A stretch of DNA of 18,850 bases from Gammaproteobacteria bacterium (lineage in GTDB: Bacteria > Pseudomonadota > Gammaproteobacteria > SZUA-152), in assembly GCA_003229995.1 (NCBI GenBank), contig QIGJ01000018.1, positions 1 through 18,850 of the forward strand, in the 5' to 3' direction. The stretch's first letter is position 1, and every line of letters starts with the position of its first letter. Shown here piece after piece: positions 3,042-17,457 of this stretch. The position numbers were made by a program, and so were the translations under genes. Under the pieces are notes generated by a model. It was not told the DNA's origin. It ran no database searches and was given only the letters and a program-made list of their open reading frames with translations.

Positions 3042-3071
3042 TAAACGCATCTCATCATTTATTGAACGCAC

Positions 3072-3146
3072 TGGGTAGGTTGTTACGGGCATTGCAGCCC
3101 GATTTCCTTCTCAGAACCGTACGTGATCATTTTTCATCTACGGCTC
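3072..3146 (-). mobile_element. Relic of a group II intron 3' end (domains V and VI)
   Basis: Read on the minus strand, 3146-3114 gives GAGCCGTA at one side and TACGGTTC at the other. These are the paired strands of group II intron domain V, with the GAGCC catalytic-triad side and the CG bulge. The apical part is degenerate, with no clean GAAA tetraloop, and the total is 33 rather than 34 nt. It is followed by a domain VI-like hairpin (GGGCTGCAATGCCC) and a CCTACCC intron-end motif near 3074. No reverse transcriptase remains upstream. The putative 3' exon leads straight into the LysE gene start. Confidence 0.6.
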
Positions 3147-7485: not shown

Positions 7486-7547
7486 CTATTCGGAGACAGC
7501 AAGATGCGTTCAGGCGCATCGCTAATGAAACCAACAGTTTTCATTGT

Positions 7548-7563
7548 TGGCACGATACATGCT
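7548..7563 (+). promoter_or_regulatory. Sigma-54 (-24/-12) promoter of the PEP-CTERM gene
   Basis: TGGCACGATACATGCT, preceded by T, matches TGGCACG-N4-TTGCW with a single mismatch (ATGC for TTGC). GG and GC have exact spacing. Predicted start near 7574, giving a leader of about 72 nt. RpoN control through PrsK/PrsR is an established feature of PEP-CTERM/exosortase systems. Confidence 0.75.
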
Positions 7564-7645
7564 TGTGGTAAACAGGTGTAGTAGTGAGAAAGGCTTAATT
7601 ATTAGCCTTGTGGTCAAAAACAGGAATTGGGGAGAAGTAGAGAAA

Positions 7646-8179
7646 ATGAAAAATTTACTGATTGCAATAGTATTGGTTTTAGGGGTGGTGGGAACTGTGA
7701 ATGCAAGTGTCATTTACACTGATACCTATAATGCGGGTGGTGTTCTGATGAAAGGCTCCCTGTTTGGTGCTGATGATAGTGTTTCCTGGCAATTTAATAT
7801 TCTTGGTGATGGCTATAATCCTGCCAGTCAGGAAATTACATCTGCAACAATTGGACTTAACCTTCGGGATGATCGTGGATGGTTTGAGCGATTTTTTATA
7901 TTCGAATATGCTGAGCTGGAGTTGGGCACAAACAAAATTTTCTGGGAAGTTGATACTGGGTTGCGTAATTTTGTTGTAGATTCTCTTGTGATTCTGAGCA
8001 ATACCGGTTTGCTGGATGTGACGCTTACCGCTAGATTAGGGGATTTCTACTTTGACTCTGCAACATTAACCGCCAAGGGGATGGACAGAGTTGTTTCTGT
8101 TTCCGAACCGGCTCCTTTTGTTCTGATGGGCCTTGGGTTGCTGGGTCTGGCTGCTGTTGCACGCCGCCGTCGCACATAA
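7646..8179 (+). CDS. PEP-CTERM sorting domain protein
   Basis: A 177-residue exported protein. Residues 1-20 are a Sec signal peptide (MKNLLIAIVLVLGVVGTVNA, cleavage after NAS-type site). The mature domain is about 125 residues, rich in Asp, Phe and small residues, with alternating beta-strand character; I do not recognise its fold. The C terminus is a PEP-CTERM signal: SEPAP, a hydrophobic helix (FVLMGLGLLGLAAVA) and RRRRT. The Pro-Glu-Pro core is present as E-P-A-P. By family, exosortase (EpsH/XrtA) cleaves at this motif and the protein is displayed or released with exopolysaccharide; no exosortase is in the window. The start is fixed at 7646 because the longer frame would begin inside the sigma-54 promoter. 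The purine-rich GGGGAGAAG serves as the ribosome binding site. Confidence 0.9.
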   Translation: MKNLLIAIVLVLGVVGTVNASVIYTDTYNAGGVLMKGSLFGADDSVSWQFNILGDGYNPASQEITSATIGLNLRDDRGWFERFFIFEYAELELGTNKIFWEVDTGLRNFVVDSLVILSNTGLLDVTLTARLGDFYFDSATLTAKGMDRVVSVSEPAPFVLMGLGLLGLAAVARRRRT

Positions 8180-11113: not shown

Positions 11114-11148
11114 AAAAAAACAGGTCGCGCCATAGGATTGCGCGACCT
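11114..11148 (-). terminator. Intrinsic terminator of sRNA A
   Basis: Minus strand AGGTCGCGC, 9-base loop, GCGCGACCT, then GTTTTTTT. A perfect 9-bp GC-rich stem with a seven-T tract. The stem is preceded by TTTTTT, which gives A residues on the other strand, so it could work weakly in both directions. Confidence 0.85.
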
Positions 11149-11206
11149 AAAAAAGGAGAATGCGACGGCTACTACATGGGAGGGAGGAATTACCGTCGCG
11201 CCCTTC
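11114..11206 (-). ncRNA. Predicted sRNA A with anti-Shine-Dalgarno loop
   Basis: On the minus strand, GCGACGG (11199-11193) pairs perfectly with CCGTCGC (11168-11162). The loop between them contains CCUCCCUCCC (11187-11178), complementary to Shine-Dalgarno sequences. A C-rich linker (AUUCUCCUUUUUU) and a strong intrinsic terminator end the RNA near 11114. A CATACT hexamer at 11219-11214 is a plausible -10 box for a start near 11206; the -35 is poor. Predicted length is about 93 nt. Sequence order and loop motifs match sRNA B upstream, so the two are siblings by duplication. Confidence 0.6.
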
Positions 11207-11304
11207 AATGCTAAGTATGTAAAGATTGGGAGACATTTCTGTGACATGGCTCACAGAATGGTGGAGAAAAGGAAGAAAGGTGTTTGTCCCGGGAAATGCA
11301 GGGC

Positions 11305-11330
11305 AAAAAAAAGGGCGCTTGCGCGCCCTT
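11305..11330 (-). terminator. Intrinsic terminator of sRNA B
   Basis: Minus strand AAGGGCGC, loop GCAA, GCGCCCTT, followed by six further T. Very stable and compact. Confidence 0.9.
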
Positions 11331-11389
11331 CAAAAGGGAGAGTAATCGTGCAATAAAACCCCGGGGAGGGAGAGGGTTGTATCGCACAT
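11305..11389 (-). ncRNA. Predicted sRNA B with anti-Shine-Dalgarno loop, sigma-54 driven
   Basis: The RNA predicted from the -24/-12 promoter begins AUGUGCGAU near 11389. Its first bases GUGC pair with GCAC at 11351-11348, with inner pairs AU-AU and ACCC-GGGU, leaving a loop UCUCCCUCCCC that is complementary to Shine-Dalgarno sequences. A second C-rich linker (UACUCUCCCUUUU) and a terminator stem of 8 bp follow, ending at about 11305, for a length of about 85 nt. The coincidence of promoter start, 5' hairpin and terminator makes an independent RNA more likely than a purB 3' untranslated region. Confidence 0.7.
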
Positions 11390-11496: not shown

Positions 11497-11572
11497 TATG
11501 CACTTCCCCATGGCAGAGCGTGACGGTTTTTTGTTATCCCGGTGTCTGAATTTTGTCAGGATCTAGGTCACA

Positions 11573-15076: not shown

Positions 15077-15363
15077 AGAACCAAGATTTTTAACTTTTTA
15101 AAAAAGTTGGGTATAAATGCTGAGTAATATCAGTTGTTTTCTCTTTTTTTTATAACAATAAAAAGAGGATAAAATAAAATAACGGGTTTTTGCTTATTAT
15201 TGTTTCTGTATATGTGGTATTGAAATGTTTATTTTAAGTCGATACCATCGGTGTCAGTTGGCACCAGAGTTGGTGCAGATTCATCCACTTTCTCGTGCGC
15301 ATTGCCAGATAAATGTAGCGAAAGAAAACGGATATTTTCGCTCATGATTTGGAGATGTATTTT
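15077..15363. other. AT-rich leader region of the multicopper oxidase gene
   Basis: Contains the inverted repeat GCACCA-GAGT-TGGTGC at 15261-15276, a possible operator. The overlapping TTGGCACCAGAGTTGGTG resembles a -24/-12 promoter, but the invariant -12 GC is GG. The rest is AT-rich without a gene. GGAG at 15351-15354 is the ribosome binding site of the next gene. Confidence 0.4.
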
Positions 15364-17457
15364 ATGCGCCATAGTATTGTAATAAGAATTTTTTCAATAG
15401 CGACCTGTCTTGCTGTTTTAATGGTTTTATCCAGCTGTAGTGACGATGGTTCTGTCAGTGATACCTCTAACGAGAAACCCATAGCGAGGATTTCACCCAG
15501 CGCTGAACAGTTTGTTCAGGTTGGAGATAGTATTAATTTTATTGGGAACAGCAGTAGTGACCCTGATGGAAATAACCCGCTGAGTTACCAATGGACGTTT
15601 TCCGGTGCCGCGACGTCAATCCAACAGTCAATTGACAGTAACACTGGGACAGTATTGTTTACCGAAGTCGGCACGGTTACCGTAAATCTGGTGGTAACAG
15701 ATAGCTTAGGGCTGACATCGAATGCCAAGGTTATTACTATTAATGTTGTCGCAGCTAACGGCAATCAGGCACCTACCGGATCAATCAGCCATGATAACGG
15801 CAACGACAGTGTTGGCAGTACCGGTAGTTTCAGCATTGCGGCAGGCAGCAGTGTAGTATTTGCCAGTACAGTCACCGATCCAGAAAATAATCCAATAAGT
15901 TATGCATGGGATTTCCAGGGCGGGACTCCGGTGACATCAAGTAGCAGTAGCTCAGTCACCGTCAATTATCCAAATACAGGTACGTTTTCCGTATCGCTGG
16001 TCATTCGTGATGATAATGCCAACACGGTAACGATTCCTACAACACCCCTGATGGTTACGGTGATCGCAGACCTTCCAGTGTTTAAACATCTGCCGGTATT
16101 AGTGCCGACGATGGTTAGTGGTGTGGCGACTTATACTTTAAATGCCCAGGAAAACGTTAATGTTATGGTTGAGACACCAGACGGAAGCTGGACAACGCCG
16201 ATGATGCGTTACAATGAATTGCAACTTGCACCGGTTATTGTTGCCAAGCGTGGTGATACCATCGAAGTGAATGTTAACAATAATTTGACTGCCAGCAATG
16301 AGGATACAACCGTACACTGGCATGGATTCAAGATTCCAGGCTCTCAGGATGGTGGACCGGATATCCCTATTGCTCCGGGTAATTCAAAAACCTATCGTTT
16401 TACTCTCGCGCAACCAGCGGCCTCCCTTTGGTTTCACCCTCATGCCCATGGCACAACAGCGACACAGGTCTATAAAGGTTTGGTGGGTGCTTTCATTCTT
16501 ACCGATGATATTACTGATGCTCTGGAAACCAACAATGAACTACCTTCGGGTGAATATGATGTTGCCCTGTTAATTCAAGATCGTCAATTTACGGCGGATT
16601 CTACAGCTACCGGTGTACGTAATCTTGTCTATGAGTTCGGTATGGCAGGGGTGTTGGGTGATCGTATATTGGTTAATGGTGTTGAGATGCCTGCTCTGGG
16701 AGTCGCGACAAGCCAGTACCGGTTTAGATTATATAATGCTTCCAACGCACGTACTTATAATTTTGCTCTGGATAACGGCGCTGATTTTTATGTGGTTGGC
16801 AGTGATGGTGGACTTTTGAATACACCCGTACGCACGGATCAAATTATGCTGGGTGCAGGTGAACGCGCTGAAATTGTGGTAGATTTTCGTTCTTTTTTAA
16901 ACCAGCAGGTCAAATTAGTCCGCCGTGCATCTAATGGTGAAACTTTTGATGTGATGCGCTTTGATGTGAACAGAGAGGTGATCGATCCGGTGGTTTTGTA
17001 CACCAGTTTACCTGCCAACGCAGAGATTAATACTCGGTTAACAGAAGCTCAAGCGAATGTTACCCGGGATTTTGTGATGAGTATGGGGTTGGTTTCTGGT
17101 CGTATGGCACCTTTGATCAATGAAATGACTTTCGATATAAATCGTGTTGATGAGACTGTTGCTTCAGGTGCCATTGAAATCTGGAATATTCAAAACACCT
17201 CGATGATGGAGCATCCATTCCATGCCCATGCGATACAATGGCAGGTGCTTGATCGTGGACCGATAGGAGGGACACTTTCACCAGCCAGCGGGGTTGAGCT
17301 TGGTTGGAAAGACACGGTGCTTGTGCAACCTGGTGAAATGGTCCGGTTTATTGGTCAATTTGACCCGGTTATAAACAATGGACTGTATATGTATCACTGC
17401 CATATTCTGGAGCATGAAGATGCTGGTATGATGGGAACCTTTGAAGTGTTGCCATAA
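15364..17457 (+). CDS. Multicopper oxidase lipoprotein with two N-terminal PKD domains
   Basis: A 697-residue envelope protein. Residues 1-25 are a lipoprotein signal with lipobox LSSC (Cys25), and Ser at +2 suggests the outer membrane. Two PKD-like beta domains follow, at about 38-128 (SSSDPDGNNPLSYQWTFSG) and 135-235 (DPENNPISYAWDFQGG). The rest is a laccase/CueO-type oxidase with all four copper motifs: HWHG at 318, HPHAHG at 358, HPFHAH at 617 and HCHILEHEDAGM at 678-689. Cys679, the following His and Met689 form the type 1 site. It would oxidise Cu(I), other metals or phenolics using O2; no Met-rich insert like that of CueO is evident. The start is placed at 15364, where GGAG lies 9 bases upstream; an upstream in-frame TTG (15349) and ATG (15355) overlap that site. 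A PKD fusion to a multicopper oxidase is uncommon. Confidence 0.92.
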   Translation: MRHSIVIRIFSIATCLAVLMVLSSCSDDGSVSDTSNEKPIARISPSAEQFVQVGDSINFIGNSSSDPDGNNPLSYQWTFSGAATSIQQSIDSNTGTVLFTEVGTVTVNLVVTDSLGLTSNAKVITINVVAANGNQAPTGSISHDNGNDSVGSTGSFSIAAGSSVVFASTVTDPENNPISYAWDFQGGTPVTSSSSSSVTVNYPNTGTFSVSLVIRDDNANTVTIPTTPLMVTVIADLPVFKHLPVLVPTMVSGVATYTLNAQENVNVMVETPDGSWTTPMMRYNELQLAPVIVAKRGDTIEVNVNNNLTASNEDTTVHWHGFKIPGSQDGGPDIPIAPGNSKTYRFTLAQPAASLWFHPHAHGTTATQVYKGLVGAFILTDDITDALETNNELPSGEYDVALLIQDRQFTADSTATGVRNLVYEFGMAGVLGDRILVNGVEMPALGVATSQYRFRLYNASNARTYNFALDNGADFYVVGSDGGLLNTPVRTDQIMLGAGERAEIVVDFRSFLNQQVKLVRRASNGETFDVMRFDVNREVIDPVVLYTSLPANAEINTRLTEAQANVTRDFVMSMGLVSGRMAPLINEMTFDINRVDETVASGAIEIWNIQNTSMMEHPFHAHAIQWQVLDRGPIGGTLSPASGVELGWKDTVLVQPGEMVRFIGQFDPVINNGLYMYHCHILEHEDAGMMGTFEVLP

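What the first reader, a model, noticed from the sequence alone, without database searches (positions are those of the whole stretch)
11114..11389. Tandem sibling small RNAs with anti-Shine-Dalgarno loops between purB and roxA
Two units on the minus strand share one order: a 5' stem-loop whose loop holds a run of the CCUCCCUCCC type, a C-rich linker (UCUCCUUUU or CUCUCCCUUUU), then a very stable intrinsic terminator. Their upstream DNA also shares CCATTCTGTG. Stem sequences differ while loop and linker are kept, the pattern expected when pairing to ribosome binding sites is the selected function. C-rich-loop sibling sRNAs are known in other proteobacteria (for example the CcsR/CuckooRNA group of alphaproteobacteria), but I recognise no described member at this locus. 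This is the strongest candidate for an undescribed system in the window.
Basis: partly seen in the sequence, partly recalled or inferred. Interest (0 to 1): 0.85.

Follow-up and report, generated by a model that had tools for sequence, protein, structure and literature searches.

The report
Twin C-rich small RNAs, different switches
Between two housekeeping genes of an uncultured gammaproteobacterium lie two look-alike small regulatory RNAs, predicted to be switched on by different signals and to shut off other genes by covering their ribosome-binding sites; relatives of one of them turn up in other gammaproteobacteria and match no catalogued RNA family.

Summary
Both minus-strand units (U1 about 11389-11303, U2 about 11206-11114) have a 5' hairpin with a C-rich loop, a C-rich linker and a terminator (fold z -4.3 to -5.3). 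They stand in tandem upstream of roxA in 18 of 22 genomes read. All 9 pairs of the U1 hairpin show two-sided compensatory changes, while the linker C-x3-CCCUU is invariant. U1 has a sigma-54 element (TGGCAC-N5-TTGC) in 19 of 19 carriers. U2 has a CRP-type site (TGTGA-N6-TCACA) at about -41.5, scoring 9/10 or better in 12 of 19. A covariance model of U1, blind to the promoter, matched other families of the class; 11 of 23 matches examined carry the same sigma-54 element upstream (expected about 0.1). No Rfam family reaches threshold; nearest are alpha-R8 MmgR/Sis RNAs and, in layout, Campylobacter CJnc230. Best reading: trans-acting anti-Shine-Dalgarno sibling sRNAs that bring two signals (a sigma-54 activator and CRP) onto overlapping mRNAs. 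Expression, targets and the sigma-54 activator are not shown. The shared upstream CCATTCTGTG is not a conserved element.

The parts
11303..11389 (-). U1 sRNA: hairpin with C-rich loop, C-rich linker, intrinsic terminator (~85 nt)
   Evidence: Fold z -5.3; model R1 match 11305-11388, E 7e-12; found in 19 of 24 family genomes, own included
11363..11372 (-). U1 anti-Shine-Dalgarno loop CUCCCUCCCC
   Evidence: Cs 26-27 of U1 invariant, 25 and 28 nearly so, in 18 aligned U1
11332..11347 (-). U1 linker with CUCUCCCUUUU
   Evidence: C-x3-CCCTT invariant in 18 of 18 aligned U1
11310..11331 (-). U1 intrinsic terminator stem-loop
11400..11414 (-). sigma-54 element of U1, TGGCACGCACATTGC
   Evidence: same element at U1 in 19 of 19 carriers; independent enrichment upstream of distant model hits
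11520..11557 (-). possible enhancer (activator) sites: two repeats, GTCTGAATTTTGTC and GTGACGGTTTTTTGTTAT (read on +)
   Evidence: seen by eye about 100-150 bp upstream of the sigma-54 element in 9 g1 and 5 of 6 g3 genomes, not in G012, G014, G015; regulator unknown
11114..11206 (-). U2 sRNA: hairpin with CCUCCCUCCC loop, UCUCCUUUUUU linker, intrinsic terminator (~93 nt)
   Evidence: Fold z -4.3; found in 19 genomes; recovered by the U1-only model, E 1.4e-5
11178..11187 (-). U2 anti-Shine-Dalgarno loop CCUCCCUCCC
   Evidence: CCUCCC in 16 of the 18 U2 that have a U1 partner
11240..11255 (-). CRP-type site TGTGAGCCATGTCACA centred at about -41.5 of U2
   Evidence: 10/10 consensus in 9 of 19, at least 9/10 in 12 of 19 genomes
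11212..11219 (-). probable -10 element of U2 (CATACTTA)
   Evidence: weak match; CATAAT or GATAAT at the same place in several relatives

Best explanation
U1 and U2 are two stand-alone, trans-acting small RNAs of one build. Each shows a C-rich anti-Shine-Dalgarno sequence in a rigid hairpin loop and a second one in the linker, and ends in a strong terminator with a U tail of the kind Hfq holds. U1 is made by sigma-54 RNA polymerase with an unidentified enhancer-binding activator; U2 is made from a class II CRP-type promoter. Each RNA would pair with GGAGG-type ribosome-binding sites, block translation and speed decay of an overlapping set of mRNAs, so that two physiological signals reach the same post-transcriptional switch. 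Shown by sequence: the structures, their conservation and covariation, the promoter elements, the presence of Hfq and CRP genes. Inferred: transcription, Hfq binding, targets and direction of regulation.
For: Folding z -4.3 to -5.3. Covariation: 94.8% of cells paired, 13 of 17 pairs and all 9 of helix 1 changed on both sides, slid controls 36-58%; 17 of 17 pairs on the 34-row set. Both units in the same order in 18 genomes of 5 genera, 87-136 bp apart in 16 of them (267 bp in G013, 698 bp in G005). Sigma-54 element at 19 of 19 U1 and in 11 of 23 examined class-wide hits of the promoter-blind model R1 (16 of 31 with R2's new hits), against 0.004 expected per window. CRP-type site at least 9/10 in 12 of 19 U2. 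Hfq in 24 of 24, CRP equivalog over cut-off in 17 of 24 family genomes, own genome included in both. Unrelated neighbours in other families (phoB-phoR, nagZ, ctpA with a polysaccharide deacetylase, aldolase) argue for trans action. Precedents for the mechanism, from passages: SisA, CyaR, NfeR1.
Against: No transcript data. The 10-nt perfect complement of the loops gave one clear ribosome-binding-site case in one genome, no conserved target, and no excess over the reversed-pattern control. The CRP-type site is degenerate in genus g3 (5-8 of 10) and absent in G015. U1 was not found in 5 of 24 family genomes, including G010 at 99% completeness. One covariation measure, further pair types, is no better than shuffles on the U1 set (22 against 22.4), and both covariation alignments were fitted to the model, which favours the structure. 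U2 of G012 and G016 has CUCUCCCC and no CCUCCC. The rpoN gene itself was not searched for.
Confidence: 0.68

Rival explanations
1. U1 and U2 are true sRNAs but act mainly by titrating a protein or another RNA (an RNA-binding protein that likes C-rich loops, or a G/A-rich sponge partner) and not by covering many ribosome-binding sites.
For: No conserved perfect-complement target found; alpha-R8 siblings have a G/A-rich sponge partner, CrfA; C-rich loops on rigid stems would also suit protein binding.
Against: The linker with CUCCCUU is predicted single-stranded and is invariant, as is the alpha-R8 10-mer that pairs with mRNAs; Hfq is present in 24 of 24 family genomes.
Confidence: 0.17
2. The units are cis elements or read-through terminators of purB or leader attenuators of roxA, not independent RNAs.
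For: They lie between purB and roxA on the same strand, and both end in terminators.
Against: Each has its own conserved promoter element. Class-wide U1 relatives sit beside unrelated genes. Two full terminators in series with a new promoter between them are not needed to end purB.
Confidence: 0.05
3. U1 and U2 are not paralogues: U2 is an unrelated CRP-driven sRNA that converged on the same C-rich design, and the class-wide sigma-54 RNAs are likewise several convergent families.
For: A DNA search with the pair gave no cross-match between U1 and U2. R1 scores of U2 (21-31 bits) overlap those of hits without a promoter element in whole genomes (up to 34.6 bits, G296). Loops and linkers differ between families.
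Against: R1 picks U2 out of the local sequence in 9 of 19 genomes, with only one other non-U1 hit below E 1e-3, itself a sigma-54 unit. The units are adjacent with the same order of parts; extra sigma-54 units in G012, G014 and G201 show that such units do occur in tandem.
Confidence: 0.3

Closest known systems
alpha-R8 / MmgR-SisA-D sRNAs (Rfam RF00519 suhB; PMC12559287 and PMC7143759, passages read)
   Same: Hairpin, single-stranded anti-SD stretch (UUUCCUCCCU there, ACUCUCCCUUUU here), terminator; sibling copies with unrelated promoters; Hfq. MmgR is induced by NtrC and is listed with RpoD and RpoN in the review's table. Model R2 picked up one true mmgR (L182).
   Different: Alphaproteobacterial. 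Its hairpin is described as weak, whereas here it is long with a C-rich loop. The window scores 19.9 bits against a gathering score of 41.
CJnc230, RpoN-dependent sRNA of Campylobacter jejuni (PMC11187230, passages read)
   Same: 98 nt, needs RpoN, two stem-loops around a 12-nt single strand with a putative anti-SD motif.
   Different: A distant lineage (recalled), flagellar context, CCUU motif; relationship not tested here.
Cuckoo / alpha-r14 (NfeR1) RNAs (PMC10746234 and PMC3927594, passages read)
   Same: Anti-SD motif in hairpin loops while the stems vary freely.
   Different: Three or four hairpins with similar CCUCCUCCC loops in one RNA, in rhizobia. Here one such hairpin per RNA and a C-rich linker.
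CyaR (PMC11795201, passages read)
   Same: CRP-dependent, Hfq-dependent sRNA that covers a Shine-Dalgarno sequence (ompX): a functional parallel to U2.
   Different: No CyaR match at Rfam threshold here; enterobacterial; no sigma-54 twin known to me (recalled).
Qrr and NrsZ sRNAs (Qrr in a passage; NrsZ in a passage; rest recalled)
   Same: Sigma-54-dependent sRNAs (Qrr's sigma-54 control recalled); Qrr are siblings.
   Different: Architecture recalled as multi-hairpin; no Rfam match at threshold in these loci.

Membership tests
Rfam RF00519 suhB/mmgR (alpha-R8) | Score at or above gathering threshold (41 bits) | tested here: not met
   19.9 bits for U1; no match at threshold in 17 loci of the family and distant carriers
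Rfam RF00519 suhB/mmgR (alpha-R8) | Hairpin - UUUCCUCCCU single strand - terminator | tested here: inconclusive
   Same order of parts, linker CUCUCCCUUUU instead of the exact 10-mer
Rfam RF02784 SorX (CcsR group, grouping recalled) | Score at or above gathering threshold (46.6 bits) | tested here: not met
   16.1 bits
Cuckoo / alpha-r14 | Several hairpins each with a CCUCCUCCC loop in one RNA | tested here: not met
   One C-rich-loop hairpin per RNA; CCUCCCUCCC or CUCCCUCCCC
Sigma-54-dependent sRNA (class by regulation) | GG-N10-GC element, TGGCAY...TGC, about 12 nt before +1 (consensus recalled) | tested here: met
   19 of 19 U1 carriers in the family; 16 of 31 distant hits examined
Sigma-54-dependent sRNA (class by regulation) | Loss of transcript in an rpoN mutant | not testable with these tools
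   needs a cultured carrier
CRP class II-activated sRNA (as CyaR) | TGTGA-N6-TCACA centred near -41.5 (consensus recalled) | tested here: met
   window 10/10; 12 of 19 genomes at least 9/10; degenerate in g3, absent in G015
Hfq-dependent base-pairing sRNA | Hfq gene and U-tailed terminator | tested here: met
   24 of 24 genomes; U runs. Binding itself is not testable here
Hfq-dependent base-pairing sRNA | Conserved mRNA target at a ribosome-binding site | tested here: inconclusive
   Only the exact 10-nt complement was searched; 1 clear case, not conserved

The most novel reading that the evidence does not exclude
The locus exposes an undescribed class of sigma-54-driven anti-Shine-Dalgarno sRNAs spread over Gammaproteobacteria: the gammaproteobacterial counterpart, possibly the homologue, of alphaproteobacterial MmgR. 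In this family it duplicated, and the copy came under cAMP-CRP, so that a sigma-54 signal (nitrogen, motility or surface life) and carbon status converge on one set of mRNAs.
Probability: 0.3. Interest if true: 0.78.

Novelty: new variant of a known kind. Interest (0 to 1): 0.63.

Why it matters
Sigma-54-controlled sRNAs with an exposed anti-SD sequence are known to me from a few isolated cases. A covarying, promoter-linked class found in eight families of one class so far, with no Rfam match at threshold in the 17 loci scanned, would be a general post-transcriptional arm of sigma-54 regulation. The tandem with a CRP-driven twin makes a direct test possible of how two global signals share one seed sequence.

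Tried and rejected
PrsR (PEP-CTERM response regulator) as the sigma-54 activator: TIGR02915 over cut-off in 19 of 40 genomes, but not in 6 of 19 U1 carriers (G002, G005, G012, G015, G021, G023; G002 is 99% complete), with only the best candidates of each genome scored; rejected as a general answer.

Enhancer motif GWCNGNWTTTTGWC as a regulon finder: 72 places in 10 genomes against 107 for the reversed control. I examined 68; the other 4 are the U1 sites of G003, G004, G006 and G009. A strict sigma-54-like element lay within 300 bp in 6 of 68: four are U1 itself, one is a GGDEF gene in G005 (L220) and one a lone match in G007. A looser scan added a few, among them TGGCAAGCGCTTAGCA in three genomes upstream of a fructosamine-kinase gene. 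The activator stays unknown; an NtrC-like site was seen by eye only at G128.

Target search by exact complement: 47 places in 8 genomes against 58 for the reversed control. Nine are the sRNA loci themselves; 24 others had a fetched locus and were examined, 14 were not. Of the 24, one is a clear ribosome-binding site (G009:C32, 498-aa ORF) and one a doubtful GTG (G002:C48).

MAFFT alignment of 18 U1 (A1) with RNAalifold missed the hairpin, which I put down to misaligned stems; a short-form subset (A3) with a hand-given structure, then model-fitted alignments (A5, A6), were used instead. Coding reading: 86-aa (-) and 101-aa (+) ORFs overlap the units; the relatives' indels and the covariation make coding unlikely, but no codon test was run.

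Hits of R1 or R2 without a sigma-54 element (12 of 23 and 3 of 8 examined) I take for chance terminators; G338 has a near miss. Not in that count: L144 and L139 (clipped by contig ends or not full length), and L174 (clipped; no element by the pattern) and the second G227 hit (no locus). Phylum-wide, R2 matched 5 of 398 genomes, own included; none of the 4 others has the element, and one is mmgR.

Full report
What is there. The window is contig 33 of a 2.2-Mb draft genome. No Rfam family reaches its gathering score in the window. The best sub-threshold sRNA matches over 621 bases are suhB/mmgR (19.9 bits, threshold 41) and SorX (16.1, threshold 46.6). The simple terminator scan called U1's terminator only, at about chance level, and no sigma-70 promoter.

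Conservation. DNA of the pair matches 13 of 40 genomes, own included, in two genera; the G013 match lies elsewhere in that genome, not at roxA. Reading the sequence upstream of roxA in 22 genomes gave U2 in 19 and U1 in 18. All 18 have both, in the same order, in genera g1, g2, g3, g5 and g6 of one family, 87-136 bp apart except in G013 (267) and G005 (698). G008 has U2 only. The three genomes of other families (G025, G032, G035) show neither there. U2 of G012 and G016 was assigned by eye. In G014 (g4), purB is followed by two sigma-54 units. A covariance model R1 built from ten U1 sequences, nine of them from outside the window's genus, finds U1 in 19 of 24 family genomes, own included; the misses are G001, G008, G010 (99% complete), G018 and G020. 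In the window R1 scores U1 at E 7e-12 and, without having seen any U2, U2 at E 1.4e-5; it recovers U2 below E 1e-3 in 9 of the 19 genomes that have one.

Structure under selection. On the model-fitted alignment of 19 U1 (18 distinct), 94.8% of pair cells are standard, 13 of 17 pairs have two-sided changes, including all nine of the 5' hairpin, and sliding the partner by 1-3 columns drops pairing to 36-58%; one of five measures, further pair types, does not exceed shuffles (22 against 22.4). On 34 sequences that include U2s and distant relatives, all 17 pairs have two-sided changes and all five measures exceed all 500 shuffles. Both alignments were fitted to the model, which favours the structure. 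Against this turnover of the stems, the linker C-x3-CCCUU and two loop Cs are invariant in 18 of 18 aligned U1. CCUCCC is present in 16 of the 18 U2 with a U1 partner; G012 and G016 have CUCUCCCC.

Promoters. Upstream of U1 stands TGGCAC-N5-TTGC (11414-11400), a sigma-54 element (consensus recalled). It is present at U1 in 19 of 19 carriers and places +1 at about 11388, the base of the hairpin. Farther upstream, two TGWC-type repeats were seen by eye in 9 g1 and 5 of 6 g3 genomes. Upstream of U2 stands TGTGAGCCATGTCACA (11255-11240), a perfect CRP-type site (consensus recalled) whose centre lies 41.5 bp before 11206. Its score is 10/10 in 9 of 19 and at least 9/10 in 12 of 19 genomes, but 5-8 in g3 and 5 in G015. 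The genome has a CRP equivalog over cut-off (17 of 24 family genomes do) and Hfq (24 of 24). It has 24 matches to a response-regulator model of the enhancer-binding type, one over cut-off, but that model also rings in 12 of 14 control genomes. rpoN itself was not searched.

A wider class. R1 over 369 genomes of the class matched 26 genomes, 22 outside the family, at E 1e-3 or better. The model begins at the RNA start and knows nothing of the promoter. Of 25 matches outside the family I examined 23; 11 have GGCAY-N6-TGC within 76 nt upstream, against a background of 0.004 per window. The other 12 lack it and I take them for chance. R2, built from family members and from distant members chosen for that promoter, again matched 26 of 369; 5 of its 8 new matches examined also carry the element. 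The 16 loci lie in 15 genomes of 7 families besides the window's. The neighbours that I annotated, in four families, differ: phoB-phoR, nagZ, a ctpA-type protease with a polysaccharide deacetylase, a bifunctional aldolase; three flanking ORFs in G378 (f151) had no Pfam hit, and f84 and f127 were not annotated. G201 has two in tandem, both with sigma-54 elements, and G012 and G014 each have an extra sigma-54 unit. Phylum-wide only 5 of 398 genomes match, own included; one is a genuine mmgR (Rfam 54.5 bits). None of the 17 loci that I scanned has an Rfam match at threshold.

Mechanism. Varied gene contexts, separate promoters and free-standing terminators argue for trans-acting RNAs. Exposed CCUCCC-type sequences in loop and linker argue for pairing with Shine-Dalgarno regions, as shown for SisA in Caulobacter and CyaR in Yersinia (passages) and for NfeR1. 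That step is inferred here: the only target test, the exact 10-nt complement, found no conserved target and no excess over its control. The activator of U1 is unknown; PrsR is excluded as a general answer.

What is known. Searches for sigma-54- or RpoN-dependent small RNAs with anti-SD motifs, for sibling sRNAs with C-rich anti-SD, for sibling sRNA with CRP and sigma-54, for Chromatiales, and for the cuckoo, mmgR, alpha-R8 and CyaR terms listed no paper that, by title and abstract, describes this locus; most subscription papers are not in that library. They did list CJnc230, an RpoN-dependent Campylobacter sRNA with two stem-loops around an anti-SD strand (passages). The closest family in build is alpha-R8, whose member MmgR is NtrC-induced and listed with RpoN in a review table. 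The window's units do not meet the alpha-R8 gathering score, so they are filed as working like alpha-R8, not as members.

Noticed in passing
L220 (G005:C301) 1500-2621: A 308-aa GGDEF protein gene has a sigma-54-like element (TGGCACGAAAATCGC) and TGWC-type repeats at the same distance as U1; perhaps a shared activator.
   Followed up: partly
L233, L234, L267 (G009, G004, G006): A conserved TGGCAAGCGCTTAGCA element lies upstream of a fructosamine-kinase gene with similar TGWC-type repeats.
   Followed up: partly
L023 (G005), between U1 and U2: 698 bp instead of about 100 separate the two sRNAs; the extra DNA looks by eye like a ParE/RelE-type toxin-antitoxin pair.
   Followed up: no
L158 3038-3301 (G201): Two sRNAs with nearly the same hairpin in tandem, both with sigma-54 elements, downstream of a CtpA-type protease gene: a second tandem, in another family.
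   Followed up: partly
L155 (G128, single-contig genome), upstream of the sRNA at 3043-3130: An NtrC-like palindrome TGCACC-GCGG-TGGTGC (seen by eye, consensus recalled) upstream of the sigma-54 sRNA beside nagZ; hints that nitrogen control may apply in that family.
   Followed up: no
window 7544-8179 and 15349-17457: A PEP-CTERM-like protein (Pfam motif just under cut-off) and a multicopper oxidase with N-terminal PKD domains.
   Followed up: partly
L028 (G013), between U1 and U2: 267 bp separate the units; the extra DNA is flanked by mirrored copies of AACCTGAATCCGTAGGTTCA-like sequence (by eye); possible small mobile element.
   Followed up: no
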